A stretch of 64,000 nucleotides of DNA. Source: Pirellula sp. SH-Sr6A (GTDB lineage: Bacteria; Planctomycetota; Planctomycetia; Pirellulales; Pirellulaceae). Shown in pieces: positions 58,713 to 64,000 of the stretch (positions are counted from its first letter, which is position 1; every line of letters starts with the position of its first letter). Made by a program: the position numbers and the translations under genes. The stretch spans positions 2,027,988 through 2,091,987 of the forward strand of contig NZ_CP011272.1 in assembly GCF_001610875.1 (NCBI RefSeq). Direction: 5' to 3'. Under the pieces are notes generated by a model. The model had not been told where the DNA came from. It did no database searches and saw only the letters and a program-made list of their open reading frames with translations.

Positions 58713-60323
58713 CTAGGTGCTTGTATCGGACGCTGGTTTCTCATCAAACACCGCGGTCGCCAGGTCTTGAGCGTTGATCGCGATGGATTCTCCCTCCTCC
58801 AAGCCGCTGAGGACATGAACACGTGTATCGCTCGACTCTCCAAGTTCGACAGGCTTGGGCTGCAATCGATTCGATGCATCACGCACCAAGACGTAGGTTT
58901 TGGAATCCTTTTCGAGAATGGCGTGGAGCGGAATGGTCAAAACATCGGGAATGTTTTGGACCATGATCTCCGAAACTGCCGTCATACCCGGTTTGAGTCC
59001 AGCGACCGATTCATCGATATTGATAATGGTCTGATACACCTTGGTGTCGTTTCCCGACCAGCTGTTCTGTTCAGGTAGTACCGCGACCGATTTAACGGTG
59101 CCTCGATAACTCTTTTGCGGGAATGCATCGACGGTGACTCGCACTTGGAGGCCGGGGCGCACCTGATCCAACGCCGACTCGTGGATTCGCGTTTCCACTT
59201 GCATCGCATCTAAGTTGGGAATCGACAAAAGCTTTTGTCGGAAGATAACCGGGATTCCTTCTCGAACTTCCATGGAGCGATTGTTGGGATACGCCACCAT
59301 ACCGGATTGAGGTGCGTAAACTTTGCACTTCTCAAGCTGGGCGCGATACCTCGCCAGTCGTTCTTCTTCCTTCTTGAGCGACTCGTCCTTGGCCCGCATC
59401 AATGCCTGTACCTGAGCAAGCCTAGCTTCGTTATTTCGAAGCACTTGCTCAAGCGATCGCTTGGCCGTTGCGACTTTCCCCTCTAGTCCCAGCAGTTCCT
59501 TTCGCTGCTCGTAGACCTGCATTTTCTTTAAGGTCGAAAGCTCGGTCTGAAGTTGGTTGAGTTTCGCAGCAAACGTCCCCTCTGCTTGTAGATACGTCAG
59601 TTCAATCCGACGAACTTCGTTTCGGTTCGCATACCCGAGTTTGAAGAGAGACTGGATTCCGCGATGCTCTTCTCGTCGAAGCTCCATGGTGGCCTGGGCC
59701 GAGAGGATCTCGTTGTTCACATCATCGATGCGACGCTTGTTGGCATCGACTGCAAGCTTTTGCGTGCCGTTTTCTTTGTCGATGTACATCTCGAGTTCAA
59801 GCTCCGCGAGCTTGACCAGCAGCTCCGCCTCTGCTTTCGCGGTCGTGTTCATCGTGATCTGATTCTTCAGATTCGCATCCGCCTGGATCTTTTCGGCGAG
59901 TGCATTCTCCGTGTAGAGGGTTTGCTCATCGAGCGCTTCTTGCATCGGATTGGAATCCAGCTCGAGAACCAAATCATCCTTCTGAACGGATGCCCCGTTG
60001 GGAATCATCCACAAGACGGTCGTTCCATTGATATTGTCCTTGCGAACGTCTTCCACTTCGCAGACCAGATCGATGTTGGACTGGCTTTCCAGGGAGCCGC
60101 GTTCGAGGACCACGATCTCCAAATTCGATCGTTCCACCGACTGCCACACGGCTTGCGAAGCAAGGTGGCTGAAATTGTTTCCTCGTCGATAACTGCTCCA
60201 ACCATACGCCCCTCCCGCCAATATGACGAGCAGGGCGATCCAAATCCGCGCCCTGGAAACCAACTGCCGGGTCTTCCAAACGCGGTGCGATGCGTCGCGT
60301 GCAGACGATTCTTCCAAACTCAT
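58713..60323 (-). CDS. MacA/HlyD-type periplasmic adaptor protein
   Basis: The start is ATG 60323, with GGAGG seven bases upstream (60331-60335). 536 residues. One N-terminal helix (RARIWIALLVILAGGAYGW), then the HlyD pattern: a lipoyl-type beta segment (NLEIVVLERGSLESQSNIDL), a long coiled-coil hairpin at about 130-300 rich in Leu, Glu, Gln and Lys, the second lipoyl half (CKVYAPQSGMVAYPNNRSMEV) and a beta-barrel (LRVRVTVDAFPQKSYRGTVKSV). It links the MacB-like permease to the TolC-like channel. This is the first gene of the set in the direction of transcription; the operon promoter would be upstream near 60330-60650. Confidence 0.92.
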   Translation of the reverse strand: MSLEESSARDASHRVWKTRQLVSRARIWIALLVILAGGAYGWSSYRRGNNFSHLASQAVWQSVERSNLEIVVLERGSLESQSNIDLVCEVEDVRKDNINGTTVLWMIPNGASVQKDDLVLELDSNPMQEALDEQTLYTENALAEKIQADANLKNQITMNTTAKAEAELLVKLAELELEMYIDKENGTQKLAVDANKRRIDDVNNEILSAQATMELRREEHRGIQSLFKLGYANRNEVRRIELTYLQAEGTFAAKLNQLQTELSTLKKMQVYEQRKELLGLEGKVATAKRSLEQVLRNNEARLAQVQALMRAKDESLKKEEERLARYRAQLEKCKVYAPQSGMVAYPNNRSMEVREGIPVIFRQKLLSIPNLDAMQVETRIHESALDQVRPGLQVRVTVDAFPQKSYRGTVKSVAVLPEQNSWSGNDTKVYQTIINIDESVAGLKPGMTAVSEIMVQNIPDVLTIPLHAILEKDSKTYVLVRDASNRLQPKPVELGESSDTRVHVLSGLEEGESIAINAQDLATAVFDEKPASDTST

Positions 60324-60652
60324 AACTGTGCCTCCAAATGGAACCACAGAGTGTGACACGGAGGGCAATTCGCAGGCATTCGGAAAAGTCATCCGATGCG
60401 ATAGCTAGCATTGGATACGTTCTCCGGTAGCAGAATGCGAGTTGCTGTGTCTTTGCCGCTCTCTCTGGTGGGGTGGGATACGAAAGGTGGGGTGGGTAGG
60501 TGGGTGCGGAACGGGTCAAGCTTCGCAAAGGAAGCCTACGCCAGCTTCTCCTATCGAAGCCAGCGCCGCTCCTCCTCCAAGAGTAATGGAAGAATCGCCG
60601 AAAATCAACCTGCGTCTCCATTGTCCGTCGGTGGCAACCCTTAGATCTTTCA
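60324..60652. other. Spacer between the MacA-like gene and the first group II intron
   Basis: About 330 bases without a supportable gene. The part next to the intron is its 3' exon (first bases TGAAAGATCT on the minus strand); the rest holds the leader of the MacA-like gene, with a ribosome-binding GGAGG at 60331-60335. The 5' exon, and any gene or terminator the intron pair entered, is beyond the window. No clear promoter was identified. Confidence 0.5.
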
Positions 60653-60725
60653 ATCGGGTAGGAGGCGGGATTACTCCCGCCGTCCTCCCACACCACCGTA
60701 CGTACGGTTCCGTATACGGCGGTTC
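60653..60725 (-). ncRNA. Group II intron domains V and VI, copy 1
   Basis: Read on the minus strand. Domain V: ACCGCCGTA pairs with TACGGTGGT as lower stem, with a two-base CG bulge and an upper TACGG/CCGTA hairpin, as expected for the catalytic domain. Domain VI: GGGAGGA, GGCGGGA and the GTAA loop pair back as TCCCGCC, TCCT and CCC, leaving one unpaired A between TCCT and CCC. That A, at 60659, is seven bases from the 3' end (60653), the classical branch-point position. It is the best evidence that the 3' splice site is correctly placed. Confidence 0.88.
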
Positions 60726-60729
60726 AGGT

Positions 60730-62109
60730 CTAACGACGATTCAGCTCAGTGCCTTTCTGGACGAGGCTTATCAGCCCAAGTTGCGTGAGGTGGCGAGTAG
60801 GCAGGGCCTGATTCATGTGGCTAGCGCCAGCATTCCACCAGGGGCCATGACCATTGCCAGCACAGACCCACGCTCGCACGCGGTCAATGCCAAGGCGAGT
60901 CAGTTCGCGGGCTCGTTTGGGCGGACGCTTCCATTGGCGCCAGTAGATGGCGCGTAACTTCCTGCGTAACCAGCTATCAAGTTCCTCGAACGTTTTCTTC
61001 ACTTCACTCTTCCGGTAGTACGACACCCAACCGATCAGGACCGGCTGCAACTGAGCAAGCACCGTACGCACATTGCGACCTCGTGCCTTGCGGAGTTCCT
61101 CGCGTAGGCGACCCTTGAAGCGTTTGACCGATTCAGGAGACACCTTAAACTTCGGTTGGTGATGGTGCGTGAACGTATAGCCCAGGAACTTGCGGTTCCA
61201 GGGGCGGTCCACGGCACTCTTGGCTCGATTCACTGTCAGTCGCAGTTTCTCGCTCAGGAAGCGTTCGACACCATTAAGCACTCGCTCACCGGCGCGGTGA
61301 CTGCGAACGTAAATGTTACAGTCATCAGCGTAGCGAACGAATTTGTGGCCTCGGCGTTCCAGCTCCTTGTCCAGCTCATCGAGCAGGACGTTGGACAGAA
61401 GCGGTGATAAGGGACCGCCTTGCGGCGTTCCCTCGCTGCGTGGACTCACGATGCCGCCTTCCATGATGCCAGCTTGCAGATACAAGCGGATCAGTTTCAG
61501 GATGCGTTTGTCTTGGATCTGACGTGCAAGGCGACTCATCAGGATGTCGTGATTGACGCGATCGAAGAACTTTTCCAAGTCCATGTCGACAACCCAGCGA
61601 TGCCCTGAAGCAATGTGTTCCTTGGCACGATCCAACGCCTGATGCGTACTCCGGCCTGGGCGAAACCCAAAGCTAGAATCCGAAAACATTGGATCGTAGA
61701 GCCTCGTGAGCACTTGCAGTAAAGCTTGCTGGATCAAGCGATCTAGCACTGTCGGTATGCCCAGCATGCGCATCCCTTTGCCACCGGGTTTAGGTATTTC
61801 TACCTTTCGCACAGGGCTCGGACGATACGTTCCGCTGAACAGTTCTTCCCGGTGGCGTTCCCAATGCTCTCGGCAGTAGCCTGGCAGTTCATCGACGGTC
61901 ACCCCATCAACGCCTGCGGCTCCTTTATTACCGACAACACGGCTCAACGCCTGCAACATATTGCTGCGGCTTAGCACCTCCTCCATCGTGACGGTGACTG
62001 AATGTTCAGTGTTCTCATTGCATGCCGGAAGTGTTTGACGCGCGTACGAATTACCCTCAGCGGTTCCGCCGCATACTCTTGTTCGCCGCTCAGGCTTCTC
62101 AGCCGTCAT
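60730..62109 (-). CDS. ltrA: Group II intron reverse transcriptase/maturase, copy 1
   Basis: 459 residues from ATG 62109. RT domain motifs in order: GVDGVTVDEL (about 67-76), RPSPVRKVEIPKPGGKGMR, DRLIQQALLQVL, the first catalytic Asp pair region VVDMDLEKFFDRVNH (Asp 175, Asp 177), EGTPQGGPLSPLLSN and YADD at 260-263. The maturase (domain X/GIIM) region follows, with LRKARGRNVRTVLAQLQPVL and WVSYYRKSEVKK. The C-terminus ends WWNAGASHMNQALPTRH with no HNH endonuclease, so the element uses target DNA opened in some other way. It splices and reverse-transcribes its own intron. The stop is five bases before domain V. Confidence 0.95.
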   Translation of the reverse strand: MTAEKPERRTRVCGGTAEGNSYARQTLPACNENTEHSVTVTMEEVLSRSNMLQALSRVVGNKGAAGVDGVTVDELPGYCREHWERHREELFSGTYRPSPVRKVEIPKPGGKGMRMLGIPTVLDRLIQQALLQVLTRLYDPMFSDSSFGFRPGRSTHQALDRAKEHIASGHRWVVDMDLEKFFDRVNHDILMSRLARQIQDKRILKLIRLYLQAGIMEGGIVSPRSEGTPQGGPLSPLLSNVLLDELDKELERRGHKFVRYADDCNIYVRSHRAGERVLNGVERFLSEKLRLTVNRAKSAVDRPWNRKFLGYTFTHHHQPKFKVSPESVKRFKGRLREELRKARGRNVRTVLAQLQPVLIGWVSYYRKSEVKKTFEELDSWLRRKLRAIYWRQWKRPPKRARELTRLGIDRVRAWVCAGNGHGPWWNAGASHMNQALPTRHLTQLGLISLVQKGTELNRR

Positions 62110-62592
62110 CTCTGCGTCTACCTCACATCACGAATACTTTGCACCAAACGGTTAAACTTGTTCGGCCCTTCGTCAGCTAAAGCCTCCGACTACTATGGCC
62201 TCTGCTGACTTCTACGGTGACATCGTAACCTCTTGCGAGGCAACTAGCTTTGCAGCATCCCCGTAGATCTCTCAGGGTAAGACGCGTAACTTTCCTCTCG
62301 TATATTCGCCGCATATACGCCGACTCGGTCCGAATGACATTGGGCTTTGAATCTTCGTGCCTTCTCGCCCACCGGGTCGTCGCCTCGTATACGGTTCGTG
62401 TACCTCGAACCGAGAGTTTGCCTGCTGCTTCCTTCAGATTCAGAGTTGCCCCTGACACCCTTGCAGTCGACTAGGAGTTCCTGTCATCAAGGCCTCCATC
62501 GGGACTTGCACCCGACAAGTTACTTCCTGGTTCACTTTCGCTTGCCAGTTGCGAGCGTCAGTCAATGACGCTCCGCGTCATGCCTGACGCAC
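62110..62592 (-). ncRNA. Group II intron 5' ribozyme region (domains I-IV), copy 1
   Basis: About 480 bases between the intron start and the maturase ATG, on the minus strand. It opens with GTGCGTCAGG and carries several short hairpins (for example GTCGGGTGCAAGTCCCGA, starting near 62516), as expected for domain I with exon-binding sites. The frames of 60-93 codons that cross it on both strands are not genes. Individual EBS sequences could not be assigned without the 5' exon, which is not in the window for either copy. Confidence 0.8.
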
Positions 62593-62665
62593 ATCGGGTA
62601 GGAGGCGGGATTACTCCCGCCGTCCTCCCACACCACCGTACGTACGGTTCCGTATACGGCGGTTC
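62593..62665 (-). ncRNA. Group II intron domains V and VI, copy 2
   Basis: The structure is the same as in copy 1, offset by 1,940 bases: the domain V stem with two-base bulge, the domain VI hairpin and the bulged branch-point A at 62599. Here the 3' splice site abuts another intron instead of an exon, so correct splicing would join the upstream exon to copy 1. Confidence 0.85.
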
Positions 62666-62669
62666 AGGT

Positions 62670-64000
62670 CTAACGACGATTCAGCTCAGTGCCTTTCTGG
62701 ACGAGGCTTATCAGCCCAAGTTGCGTGAGGTGGCGAGTAGGCAGGGCCTGATTCATGTGGCTAGCGCCAGCATTCCACCAGGGGCCATGACCATTGCCAG
62801 CACAGACCCACGCTCGCACGCGGTCAATGCCAAGGCGAGTCAGTTCGCGGGCTCGTTTGGGCGGACGCTTCCATTGGCGCCAGTAGATGGCGCGTAACTT
62901 CCTGCGTAACCAGCTATCAAGTTCCTCGAACGTTTTCTTCACTTCACTCTTCCGGTAGTACGACACCCAACCGATCAGGACCGGCTGCAACTGAGCAAGC
63001 ACCGTACGCACATTGCGACCTCGTGCCTTGCGGAGTTCCTCGCGTAGGCGACCCTTGAAGCGTTTGACCGATTCAGGAGACACCTTAAACTTCGGTTGGT
63101 GATGGTGCGTGAACGTATAGCCCAGGAACTTGCGGTTCCAGGGGCGGTCCACGGCACTCTTGGCTCGATTCACTGTCAGTCGCAGTTTCTCGCTCAGGAA
63201 GCGTTCGACACCATTAAGCACTCGCTCACCGGCGCGGTGACTGCGAACGTAAATGTTACAGTCATCAGCGTAGCGAACGAATTTGTGGCCTCGGCGTTCC
63301 AGCTCCTTGTCCAGCTCATCGAGCAGGACGTTGGACAGAAGCGGTGATAAGGGACCGCCTTGCGGCGTTCCCTCGCTGCGTGGACTCACGATGCCGCCTT
63401 CCATGATGCCAGCTTGCAGATACAAGCGGATCAGTTTCAGGATGCGTTTGTCTTGGATCTGACGTGCAAGGCGACTCATCAGGATGTCGTGATTGACGCG
63501 ATCGAAGAACTTTTCCAAGTCCATGTCGACAACCCAGCGATGCCCTGAAGCAATGTGTTCCTTGGCACGATCCAACGCCTGATGCGTACTCCGGCCTGGG
63601 CGAAACCCAAAGCTAGAATCCGAAAACATTGGATCGTAGAGCCTCGTGAGCACTTGCAGTAAAGCTTGCTGGATCAAGCGATCTAGCACTGTCGGTATGC
63701 CCAGCATGCGCATCCCTTTGCCACCGGGTTTAGGTATTTCTACCTTTCGCACAGGGCTCGGACGATACGTTCCGCTGAACAGTTCTTCCCGGTGGCGTTC
63801 CCAATGCTCTCGGCAGTAGCCTGGCAGTTCATCGACGGTCACCCCATCAACGCCTGCGGCTCCTTTATTACCGACAACACGGCTCAACGCCTGCAACATA
63901 TTGCTGCGGCTTAGCACCTCCTCCATCGTGACGGTGACTGAATGTTCAGTGTTCTCATTGCATGCCGGAAGTGTTTGACGCGCGTACGAATTACCCTCAG
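62670..64000 (-). CDS. ltrA: Group II intron reverse transcriptase/maturase, copy 2 (N-terminus beyond window)
   Basis: The frame is open from 62670 to the window edge, which covers residues 17-459 of the copy 1 protein; the ATG should be at 64049. The translated part is identical to copy 1, with DMDLEKFFDRVNH, YADD and the WWNAGASHMN end. Both copies therefore appear intact and recent. Confidence 0.93.
   Translation of the reverse strand, partial: EGNSYARQTLPACNENTEHSVTVTMEEVLSRSNMLQALSRVVGNKGAAGVDGVTVDELPGYCREHWERHREELFSGTYRPSPVRKVEIPKPGGKGMRMLGIPTVLDRLIQQALLQVLTRLYDPMFSDSSFGFRPGRSTHQALDRAKEHIASGHRWVVDMDLEKFFDRVNHDILMSRLARQIQDKRILKLIRLYLQAGIMEGGIVSPRSEGTPQGGPLSPLLSNVLLDELDKELERRGHKFVRYADDCNIYVRSHRAGERVLNGVERFLSEKLRLTVNRAKSAVDRPWNRKFLGYTFTHHHQPKFKVSPESVKRFKGRLREELRKARGRNVRTVLAQLQPVLIGWVSYYRKSEVKKTFEELDSWLRRKLRAIYWRQWKRPPKRARELTRLGIDRVRAWVCAGNGHGPWWNAGASHMNQALPTRHLTQLGLISLVQKGTELNRR

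What the first reader, a model, noticed from the sequence alone, without database searches (positions are those of the whole stretch)
60653..64000. Two group II introns in perfect head-to-tail tandem with no spacer
The repeat period is 1,940 bases, which equals the intron length fixed independently by its GTGCG start (62592) and CTACCCGAT end (60653). The 3' end of copy 2 touches the 5' end of copy 1 directly, and the two copies show no difference where compared. Tandem, abutting group II introns are rarely described. They raise the questions of which pair of splice sites is used and whether the outer exons are joined correctly. An assembly artefact is also possible, because exactly repeated units of this length are easily collapsed or expanded.
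Basis: partly seen in the sequence, partly recalled or inferred. Interest (0 to 1): 0.75.

Follow-up and report, generated by a model that had tools for sequence, protein, structure and literature searches.

The report
Tandem group IIC intron at one terminator
A self-splicing mobile intron that inserts just behind gene terminators sits here as two identical copies end to end, most likely because it inserted twice at the same spot; a related intron in another bacterium carries traces of exactly such a second insertion.

Summary
The window lies in a one-contig 6.53-Mb genome; both tandem copies are complete (1,940 bp each, 100% identical, no spacer), each with an intact 459-aa reverse transcriptase/maturase. 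They are group IIC introns and belong to 11 identical copies at 10 sites; all 10 sites lie directly behind a terminator-like hairpin ending TTCGT or TTTGT. A same-genus genome has the empty site. The pattern is not private: a scan of one genome per species (84,980) gave head-to-tail IIC introns in six more assemblies (three cut by contig ends or doubtful, one with an assembly gap). One alphaproteobacterial MAG has five tandem junctions at four loci, and their registers point to a mechanism: at one, a new copy inserted between the first and second base of the resident intron, so the upstream copy is the newcomer. Salegentibacter has two different introns abutting, which homologous duplication cannot make. 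Best explanation: the target of a IIC intron lies almost wholly 5' of the cut, so insertion does not destroy it and occupied sites stay targets. The window's own junction is in perfect register, so recombination or RT template switching cannot be excluded for this pair. Splicing should start with the upstream copy and join the outer exons correctly (inferred).

The parts
60653..62592 (-). downstream (3') intron copy, complete, 1,940 bp
   Evidence: 100% over 1-1940; exact match
62593..64000 (-). upstream (5') intron copy; 1,408 of 1,940 bp lie in the window, the rest runs to G000:C1:2092519 (equivalent to window 64532)
62592..62593 (-). tandem junction CCTACCCGAT|GTGCG, no spacer
60730..62109 (-). 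intron-encoded protein, 459 aa, reverse transcriptase (105-313) + maturase domain (328-405); no endonuclease domain among Pfam matches at E<=0.001
   Evidence: RVT_1, GIIM; TIGR04416, 418.1 bits; first solved relative: GsI-IIC RT 6ar1, E 1.3e-144
62670..64000 (-). the same protein in the upstream copy (ends beyond the window, at 64049-equivalent)
   Evidence: open at the window end; L009:5658-7037, 459 aa
62281..62455 (-). part of intron domains I-IV, RF02001, downstream copy
   Evidence: 131.4 bits
62165..62247 (-). part of intron domains I-IV, RF01998, downstream copy
   Evidence: 63 bits
60653..60724 (-). domains V-VI of the downstream copy; bulged A 7 nt from the 3' end in the predicted fold
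   Evidence: (RF00029, 47.9 bits)
62593..62664 (-). domains V-VI of the upstream copy
   Evidence: RF00029, 47.9 bits
62395..62399 (-). likely EBS1 (ACGAA, intron 194-198), can pair with TTCGT of the 5' exons; moderate confidence
58713..60392 (-). next gene downstream of the tandem: HlyD-type membrane-fusion protein
   Evidence: same neighbour in G026

Best explanation
A group IIC (class C) intron retroelement, present as 11 identical copies, inserted behind the terminator of a small gene (a 75-aa ORF just beyond the window) and then inserted a second time at the same place. A IIC intron recognises the 5' side of its target: a terminator hairpin plus a short IBS1 directly before the cut; on the 3' side it reads about one base. 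Insertion therefore leaves the 5' target intact and only replaces the +1 base, so the occupied site is still a target. The new copy enters upstream of the resident, and the array grows in the 5' direction. Shown: the anatomy, the terminator rule, the empty site, and register footprints of re-insertion in another genome. Inferred: that the window's own pair arose this way; that the upstream copy splices first and thereby restores TTCGT|GTGCG for the downstream copy (or both leave as one 3.9-kb unit), so that the outer exons are joined correctly.
For: Class: group II D1-D4 and DV models, RT+maturase without endonuclease hit, first solved relative GsI-IIC RT. Target: 10 of 10 non-junction 5' flanks have a hairpin in the last 45 nt (MFE -14.6 to -27.8) and end TTCGT (9) or TTTGT (1); 6% of 3,000 random 45-mers of the window reach -14.6. 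Empty site in G026 with the neighbouring genes in place. The 5' flanks can pair over 5 bases with ACGAA at 194-198 in 10 of 10 own sites; the junction ..CCGAT pairs there over 1 base. The +1 base is T at 9 of 10 non-tandem own 3' ends and G at one, and T at 17 of 17 non-tandem ends of G060, so a G at +1, as in an occupied site, occurs once outside tandems. Register footprints in G060: 22 3' ends, 5 of them tandem junctions at 4 loci: 2 perfect (one triple array); 1 where the 5' flank is CTTG, then a full copy, then a copy without its first G, i.e. insertion between G1 and T2 of the resident; 2 with a single T between the copies. If the upstream copy is the newcomer, its +1 base is T in these 3 shifted cases, the preferred one. 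Salegentibacter: two different IIC introns (79% over the 407 positions aligned) abut and have the same EBS1-loop letters ACACGAACA.
Against: The window's own junction is in perfect register and carries no footprint that separates re-insertion from recombination or template switching. The polarised case is one junction in one MAG. Pairing alone is a weak guide: many places in the intron can pair with the 5' flanks over 4 or more bases, and the junction's last 8 bases could pair with intron 77-84. The EBS1 rule has exceptions: 3 of 14 G060 flanks, 1 of 4 Duodenibacillus flanks and the one Myxococcota flank score 0, and the Salegentibacter flank fits its own loop (6.5) no better than the G060 loop (7.0). 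The +1 base in the occupied site (G) is not the preferred T. Tandems are rare: 0 of 249 genomes in the Paenibacillus phylum sample and 1 of 289 (G060 itself) in the class of G060, with the number of IIC introns there not measured; in the own-phylum sample the places listed show only the own pair (list cut for rich genomes).
Confidence: 0.67

Rival explanations
1. Homologous recombination made the tandem: an excised intron circle copied to DNA, or an unequal exchange, recombined with the resident copy and gave a perfect head-to-tail pair.
For: Perfect register and 100% identity. Intron RNA circles with perfectly joined ends, and some with extra nucleotides, are reported for Ll.LtrB (PMC6248898, passages read). 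Eleven identical copies are good substrates.
Against: Cannot make the Salegentibacter pair of two different introns nor, in one step, the G060 case with a G in front of one copy and missing from the other. Unequal exchange between different sites would carry flanking DNA between the copies. I know of no DNA circle of a IIC intron (recall).
Confidence: 0.15
2. Template switching: during one insertion the intron RT ran off the 5' end of one intron RNA onto the 3' end of a second, giving a tandem cDNA in one event.
For: First solved relative is GsI-IIC RT; template switching by such RTs is recalled and appears in the abstract start of PMC5566474 (listing only). A non-templated A before the switch would give the T spacers.
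Against: Does not explain the moved G in G060 in one step, and the array still has to be joined to the 5' exon.
Confidence: 0.08
3. Insertion of the second copy downstream, using the domain VI hairpin and 3' end of the resident as a false terminator.
For: Domain VI ends in a strong hairpin directly before the junction (-26.7 kcal/mol for the last 45 nt); the last 8 bases can pair with intron 77-84.
Against: CCGAT does not pair with the two EBS1 candidates beyond one base (score 0); in the one polarised case the upstream copy is the newcomer.
Confidence: 0.04
4. Assembly artefact: a single copy expanded to two.
For: Exact 1.94-kb repeats are error-prone; the Bryobacterales contig that consists of two copies and three bases (L052) looks like such a case. 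No reads were seen.
Against: One-contig genome with 11 identical copies placed. In G060 tandem partners are told apart by an inserted element in one of them and by single-base register differences.
Confidence: 0.06

Closest known systems
Group IIC / bacterial class C introns inserted behind intrinsic terminators (Robart et al. 2007, not held; cited in PMC7161350 and PMC8919778, passages read)
   Same: RNA domains, RT/maturase without endonuclease, hairpin + short IBS1 target
   Different: here two copies occupy one target in direct abutment
Bacterial twintrons (Thermosynechococcus, PMC2882425; review PMC4424553; passages read)
   Same: one mobile group II intron inserted in relation to another; consecutive splicing expected
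   Different: twintrons are nested inside an intron; here the copies abut at the splice junction and neither interrupts the other
Nested arrays of Methanosarcina acetivorans (described in PMC4424553 and PMC2882425, passages read)
   Same: repeated site-specific homing at one place
   Different: nested configuration
Circularly permuted group II introns (PMC8637638, passages read)
   Same: a tandem contains the domain order V-VI then I-IV across its junction
   Different: here both copies are complete and canonical; the junction has no sequence between the splice sites

Membership tests
Group IIC (class C) intron | group II ribozyme domains | tested here: met
   RF02001, RF01998, RF00029 above gathering scores; bulged A in DVI in the predicted fold
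Group IIC (class C) intron | RT + maturase, no endonuclease domain, nearest to known IIC proteins | tested here: met
   Pfam RVT_1 and GIIM only at E<=0.001; GsI-IIC RT first in PDB
Group IIC (class C) intron | insertion directly 3' of an intrinsic terminator hairpin | tested here: met
   10 of 10 non-junction 5' flanks; control 6% of 3,000 random 45-mers
Group IIC (class C) intron | short IBS1-EBS1 pairing and one-base IBS3 | tested here: inconclusive
   IBS1 (TTCGT/TTTGT, 10 of 10) and +1 T (9 of 10) are conserved; which loop is EBS1 rests on comparison with one other family, with exceptions; EBS3 not located
Group IIC (class C) intron | self-splicing and retrohoming activity | not testable with these tools
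   identity of 11 copies suggests recent mobility
Twintron | one intron inserted inside another | tested here: not met
Circularly permuted group II intron | domains V-VI placed before I-IV with a short stretch between the splice sites, no canonical copy | tested here: not met
   two complete canonical copies

The most novel reading that the evidence does not exclude
Group IIC introns have no target-site immunity: because their target lies 5' of the cut, an occupied terminator remains a homing site, so these introns build 5'-growing head-to-tail arrays (newcomer one base upstream, exactly at, or one base inside the resident's 5' end), which recombination then collapses. Tandem arrays would be a general, transient state of IIC introns across phyla.
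Probability: 0.65. Interest if true: 0.6.

Novelty: new variant of a known kind. Interest (0 to 1): 0.52.

Why it matters
A homing intron usually splits its target by inserting into it, which limits it to one copy per site (general knowledge, recalled). If IIC introns do not, this explains tandem arrays, gives a way to gain intron copies at a site that harms no gene, and makes a clean test of what in the target is really read. It also gives natural substrates for asking how a ribozyme chooses among neighbouring splice sites.

Tried and rejected
Idea that the second Duodenibacillus copy is an ORF-deleted derivative (written in notebook entry 2): rejected, the stretch is a run of N, an assembly gap. 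EBS1 at intron 205-210: pairs over 6 bases with 10 of 10 own flanks, but in G060 the homologous loop pairs mostly over 3 bases with G060 flanks, less than the own loop does, so 194-198 is preferred; not proven. In one search one own flank (TTTTTTGT) fits the G060 loop better (7) than its own (5). For G060 I used 14 of 17 loci: two lack a 5' end in the fetched DNA (L123, L133) and one (L134) has the flank of L120. Paenibacillus-phylum sample: 0 of 249 genomes match the tandem pattern. G060 class: 1 of 289, G060 itself. A terminator scanner with strict T-run rules did not list the terminator of the 75-aa ORF (the tail TTTCTTCGT is broken by C), although the flank folds at -17.3. The 75-aa ORF matches no Pfam family at E<=1 and no NCBIfam family. 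The attempt to name the organism by a guessed accession failed; 'planctomycete' in my notes is inference from recalled protein families in the flanks. The 29 loci sort, and by eye, into 6 tandems (L051, L052, L061, L066, L074, L077), 2 with an intron followed by only a 5' stub that I could recognise (L069, L071), 6 with an intron-like 3' end followed by GTGYG without a recognisable second intron (L055, L056, L062, L073, L075, L078) and 15 chance matches.
Full report
OBSERVATION. The repeat is real: the 300-base stretches 60653-60952 and 62593-62892 are identical and 1,940 bases apart. The whole unit of 1,940 bp occurs 11 times, each at 100% identity over its full length, in the single 6,534,136-bp contig from which the window comes; two of the 11 abut at 2088640-2092519. 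Exact string search in fetched stretches confirms all 11. The window cuts the upstream copy 532 bases before its 5' end.

WHAT IT IS. Rfam models for domains I-IV and V match in both copies. The 459-aa protein has a reverse transcriptase and a maturase domain and no endonuclease hit at E<=0.001, fits TIGR04416, and its first solved relative is GsI-IIC RT (6ar1, E 1.3e-144), followed by 7uim. With the insertion behind terminators this is a group IIC, class C intron. In one search, 10 of 10 non-junction 5' flanks carry a hairpin (MFE -14.6 to -27.8 in the last 45 nt) and end TTCGT (9) or TTTGT (1). Of 3,000 random 45-mers of the window 6% reach -14.6; of 278 TTYGT sites in the window outside the introns, 5 have such a hairpin and a T-run.

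EMPTY SITE. 26 of 27 genus genomes (own included) match the HD-domain neighbour; the closest after the own genome is G026 (82% identity). It has the HD gene, the 75-aa ORF (100% identical) and the beginning of the HlyD gene in the same order on one contig (L080), and the terminator ..GGCCTTCTTCGT|TTTCC without intron. So the target is the terminator of that ORF, whose stop codon lies about 85 bp beyond the outer 5' end of the tandem, outside the window (L009:7606-7833).

SPLICE-SITE LOGIC. ACGAA at intron 194-198 corresponds to an internal loop of the Rfam domain-I structure (aligned for relatives, not for the own copy) and can pair with the last five bases of 10 of 10 own 5' exons. The homologous loop of the G060 intron (ACAGAAACC) pairs better with G060 flanks (mean score 3.61) than with own flanks (0.7), and the own loop the other way round (0.57 and 5.9). 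Exceptions: 3 of 14 G060 flanks, 1 of 4 Duodenibacillus flanks and the one Myxococcota flank score 0, and the Salegentibacter flank does not discriminate. A second candidate at 205-210 pairs over 6 bases with own flanks but fits G060 poorly. The tandem junction ..CCGAT pairs with either over one base; elsewhere its last 8 bases could pair with intron 77-84. Hence only the upstream copy has the usual IBS1. Inferred: the upstream copy leaves first and recreates TTCGT|GTGCG for the second, or the upstream 5' site is used with the downstream 3' site; in each case the outer exons are joined exactly. Since the site lies behind a terminator, little should depend on it for the host.

RELATIVES. A scan of the collection of one genome per species (84,980 species, contigs of 3 kb or more) for an intron 3' end followed at once by GTGYG gave 29 loci. 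By Rfam, self-comparison and inspection 6 hold two IIC introns end to end: L051 (alphaproteobacterial MAG G060); L074 (Duodenibacillus massiliensis; second copy with an assembly gap); L077 (Salegentibacter; two different introns, 79% identical over 407 aligned positions; both have D1-D4 matches, but I did not find the 3' end of the second); L066/L143 (Myxococcota MAG; a second intron with a different 5' end, cut by the contig end after 129 nt); L061/L138 (Luteolibacter MAG; first intron cut by the contig end, second a 749-nt form too short for the protein gene); L052 (Bryobacterales MAG; a contig of two copies and three bases, doubtful). Two more have only a recognisable 5' stub of a second intron (L069, L071). 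Records of the window's own genome may be left out of that scan.

MECHANISM FOOTPRINTS. G060 has 22 intron 3' ends, all within fetched stretches. Five of the 22 are tandem junctions, at four loci. (i) L119: three copies, two perfect junctions, 5' flank ..CTTCTTT. (ii) L121, first pair: 5' flank ..CCCCTTTTCTTG, then a complete copy, then a copy that begins TGTGCC, that is, lacks its first G. The missing G sits in front of the other copy. One insertion between G1 and T2 of a resident intron gives exactly this; the upstream copy is then the newcomer. (iii) L121, second pair, and L120: one T between the copies, as expected if the newcomer cut one base upstream of the resident's 5' end. In (ii) and (iii) the newcomer's +1 base is T, as at 17 of 17 non-tandem G060 ends. 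In L121's second pair the downstream copy is interrupted by a 1,771-bp insert with an 8-bp duplication, so the two copies are not one copy assembled twice. L120 and L134 agree at 100% over 12 kb except for one intron plus one T: two alleles or duplicates, single against double; loss by recombination between the copies would give the single form exactly (inference).

LIMITS. The own pair has register 0, which re-insertion, circle recombination and template switching all allow; I assign it to re-insertion by analogy. The polarised footprint is one junction in one MAG. No reads were seen. Prevalence is unknown: one search found 0 of 249 in the Paenibacillus phylum sample and 1 of 289 in the class of G060 (G060 itself), without a count of IIC introns. 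In 392 genomes of the own phylum, 69 had a match to the 3'-end pattern, many of them chance by eye; the places listed show no other pair at tandem spacing, but the list is cut for rich genomes.

LITERATURE. Searches. I read passages, not whole texts, of PMC8919778, PMC7161350, PMC8637638, PMC8742464, PMC3522654, PMC2828477, PMC7938551, PMC2882425, PMC4424553 and PMC6248898. Among them are descriptions of IIC insertion behind terminators, nested twintrons and permuted introns; the passages seen do not describe abutting tandem IIC introns. Robart 2007, Toor 2006 and the Bacillus cereus survey looked for by DOI are not held, and Dai and Zimmerly 2002 was not looked up, so an earlier report is possible.

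Noticed in passing
G000:C1:42120, 1025087, 1029760, 1035816 (L019, L020): A second IIC-like intron family in the same genome, with another 3' end (..GGGCATCCTTACCCGAT), at least four 3' ends in a cut list; three lie within 11 kb.
   Followed up: partly
L010:3022-7955: One intron copy ends 28 bp before the first gene of an array of at least 31 tRNA genes in about 3 kb.
   Followed up: no
L011 and L012: Two intron copies at paralogous sites: flanks 93% (115 bp upstream) and 96% (3 kb downstream) identical, introns 100% identical, same insertion point; independent insertions or gene conversion.
   Followed up: partly
L042 and L025 (G026): Short 5'-part fragments (62 and 102 nt, 92% and 81% identical to the intron) behind T-rich terminator-like sequence in the sister genome: probably relics of lost introns.
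   Followed up: partly
L147:2213-2330: Intron 3' end followed by about 20 nt of an intron 5' end and then a hairpin with long A and T runs; a stub of a second copy.
   Followed up: no
L121 (G060:C9): A 1,771-bp element with an 8-bp target duplication inside one tandem intron copy; its long ORF resembles an IS66-type transposase (label recalled, not searched).
   Followed up: no
L009:7606-7833: 75-aa ORF without Pfam or NCBIfam match but 100% and 97% identical in two same-genus genomes, looked for only in stretches around the HD gene: a strongly conserved small protein of unknown role.
   Followed up: partly
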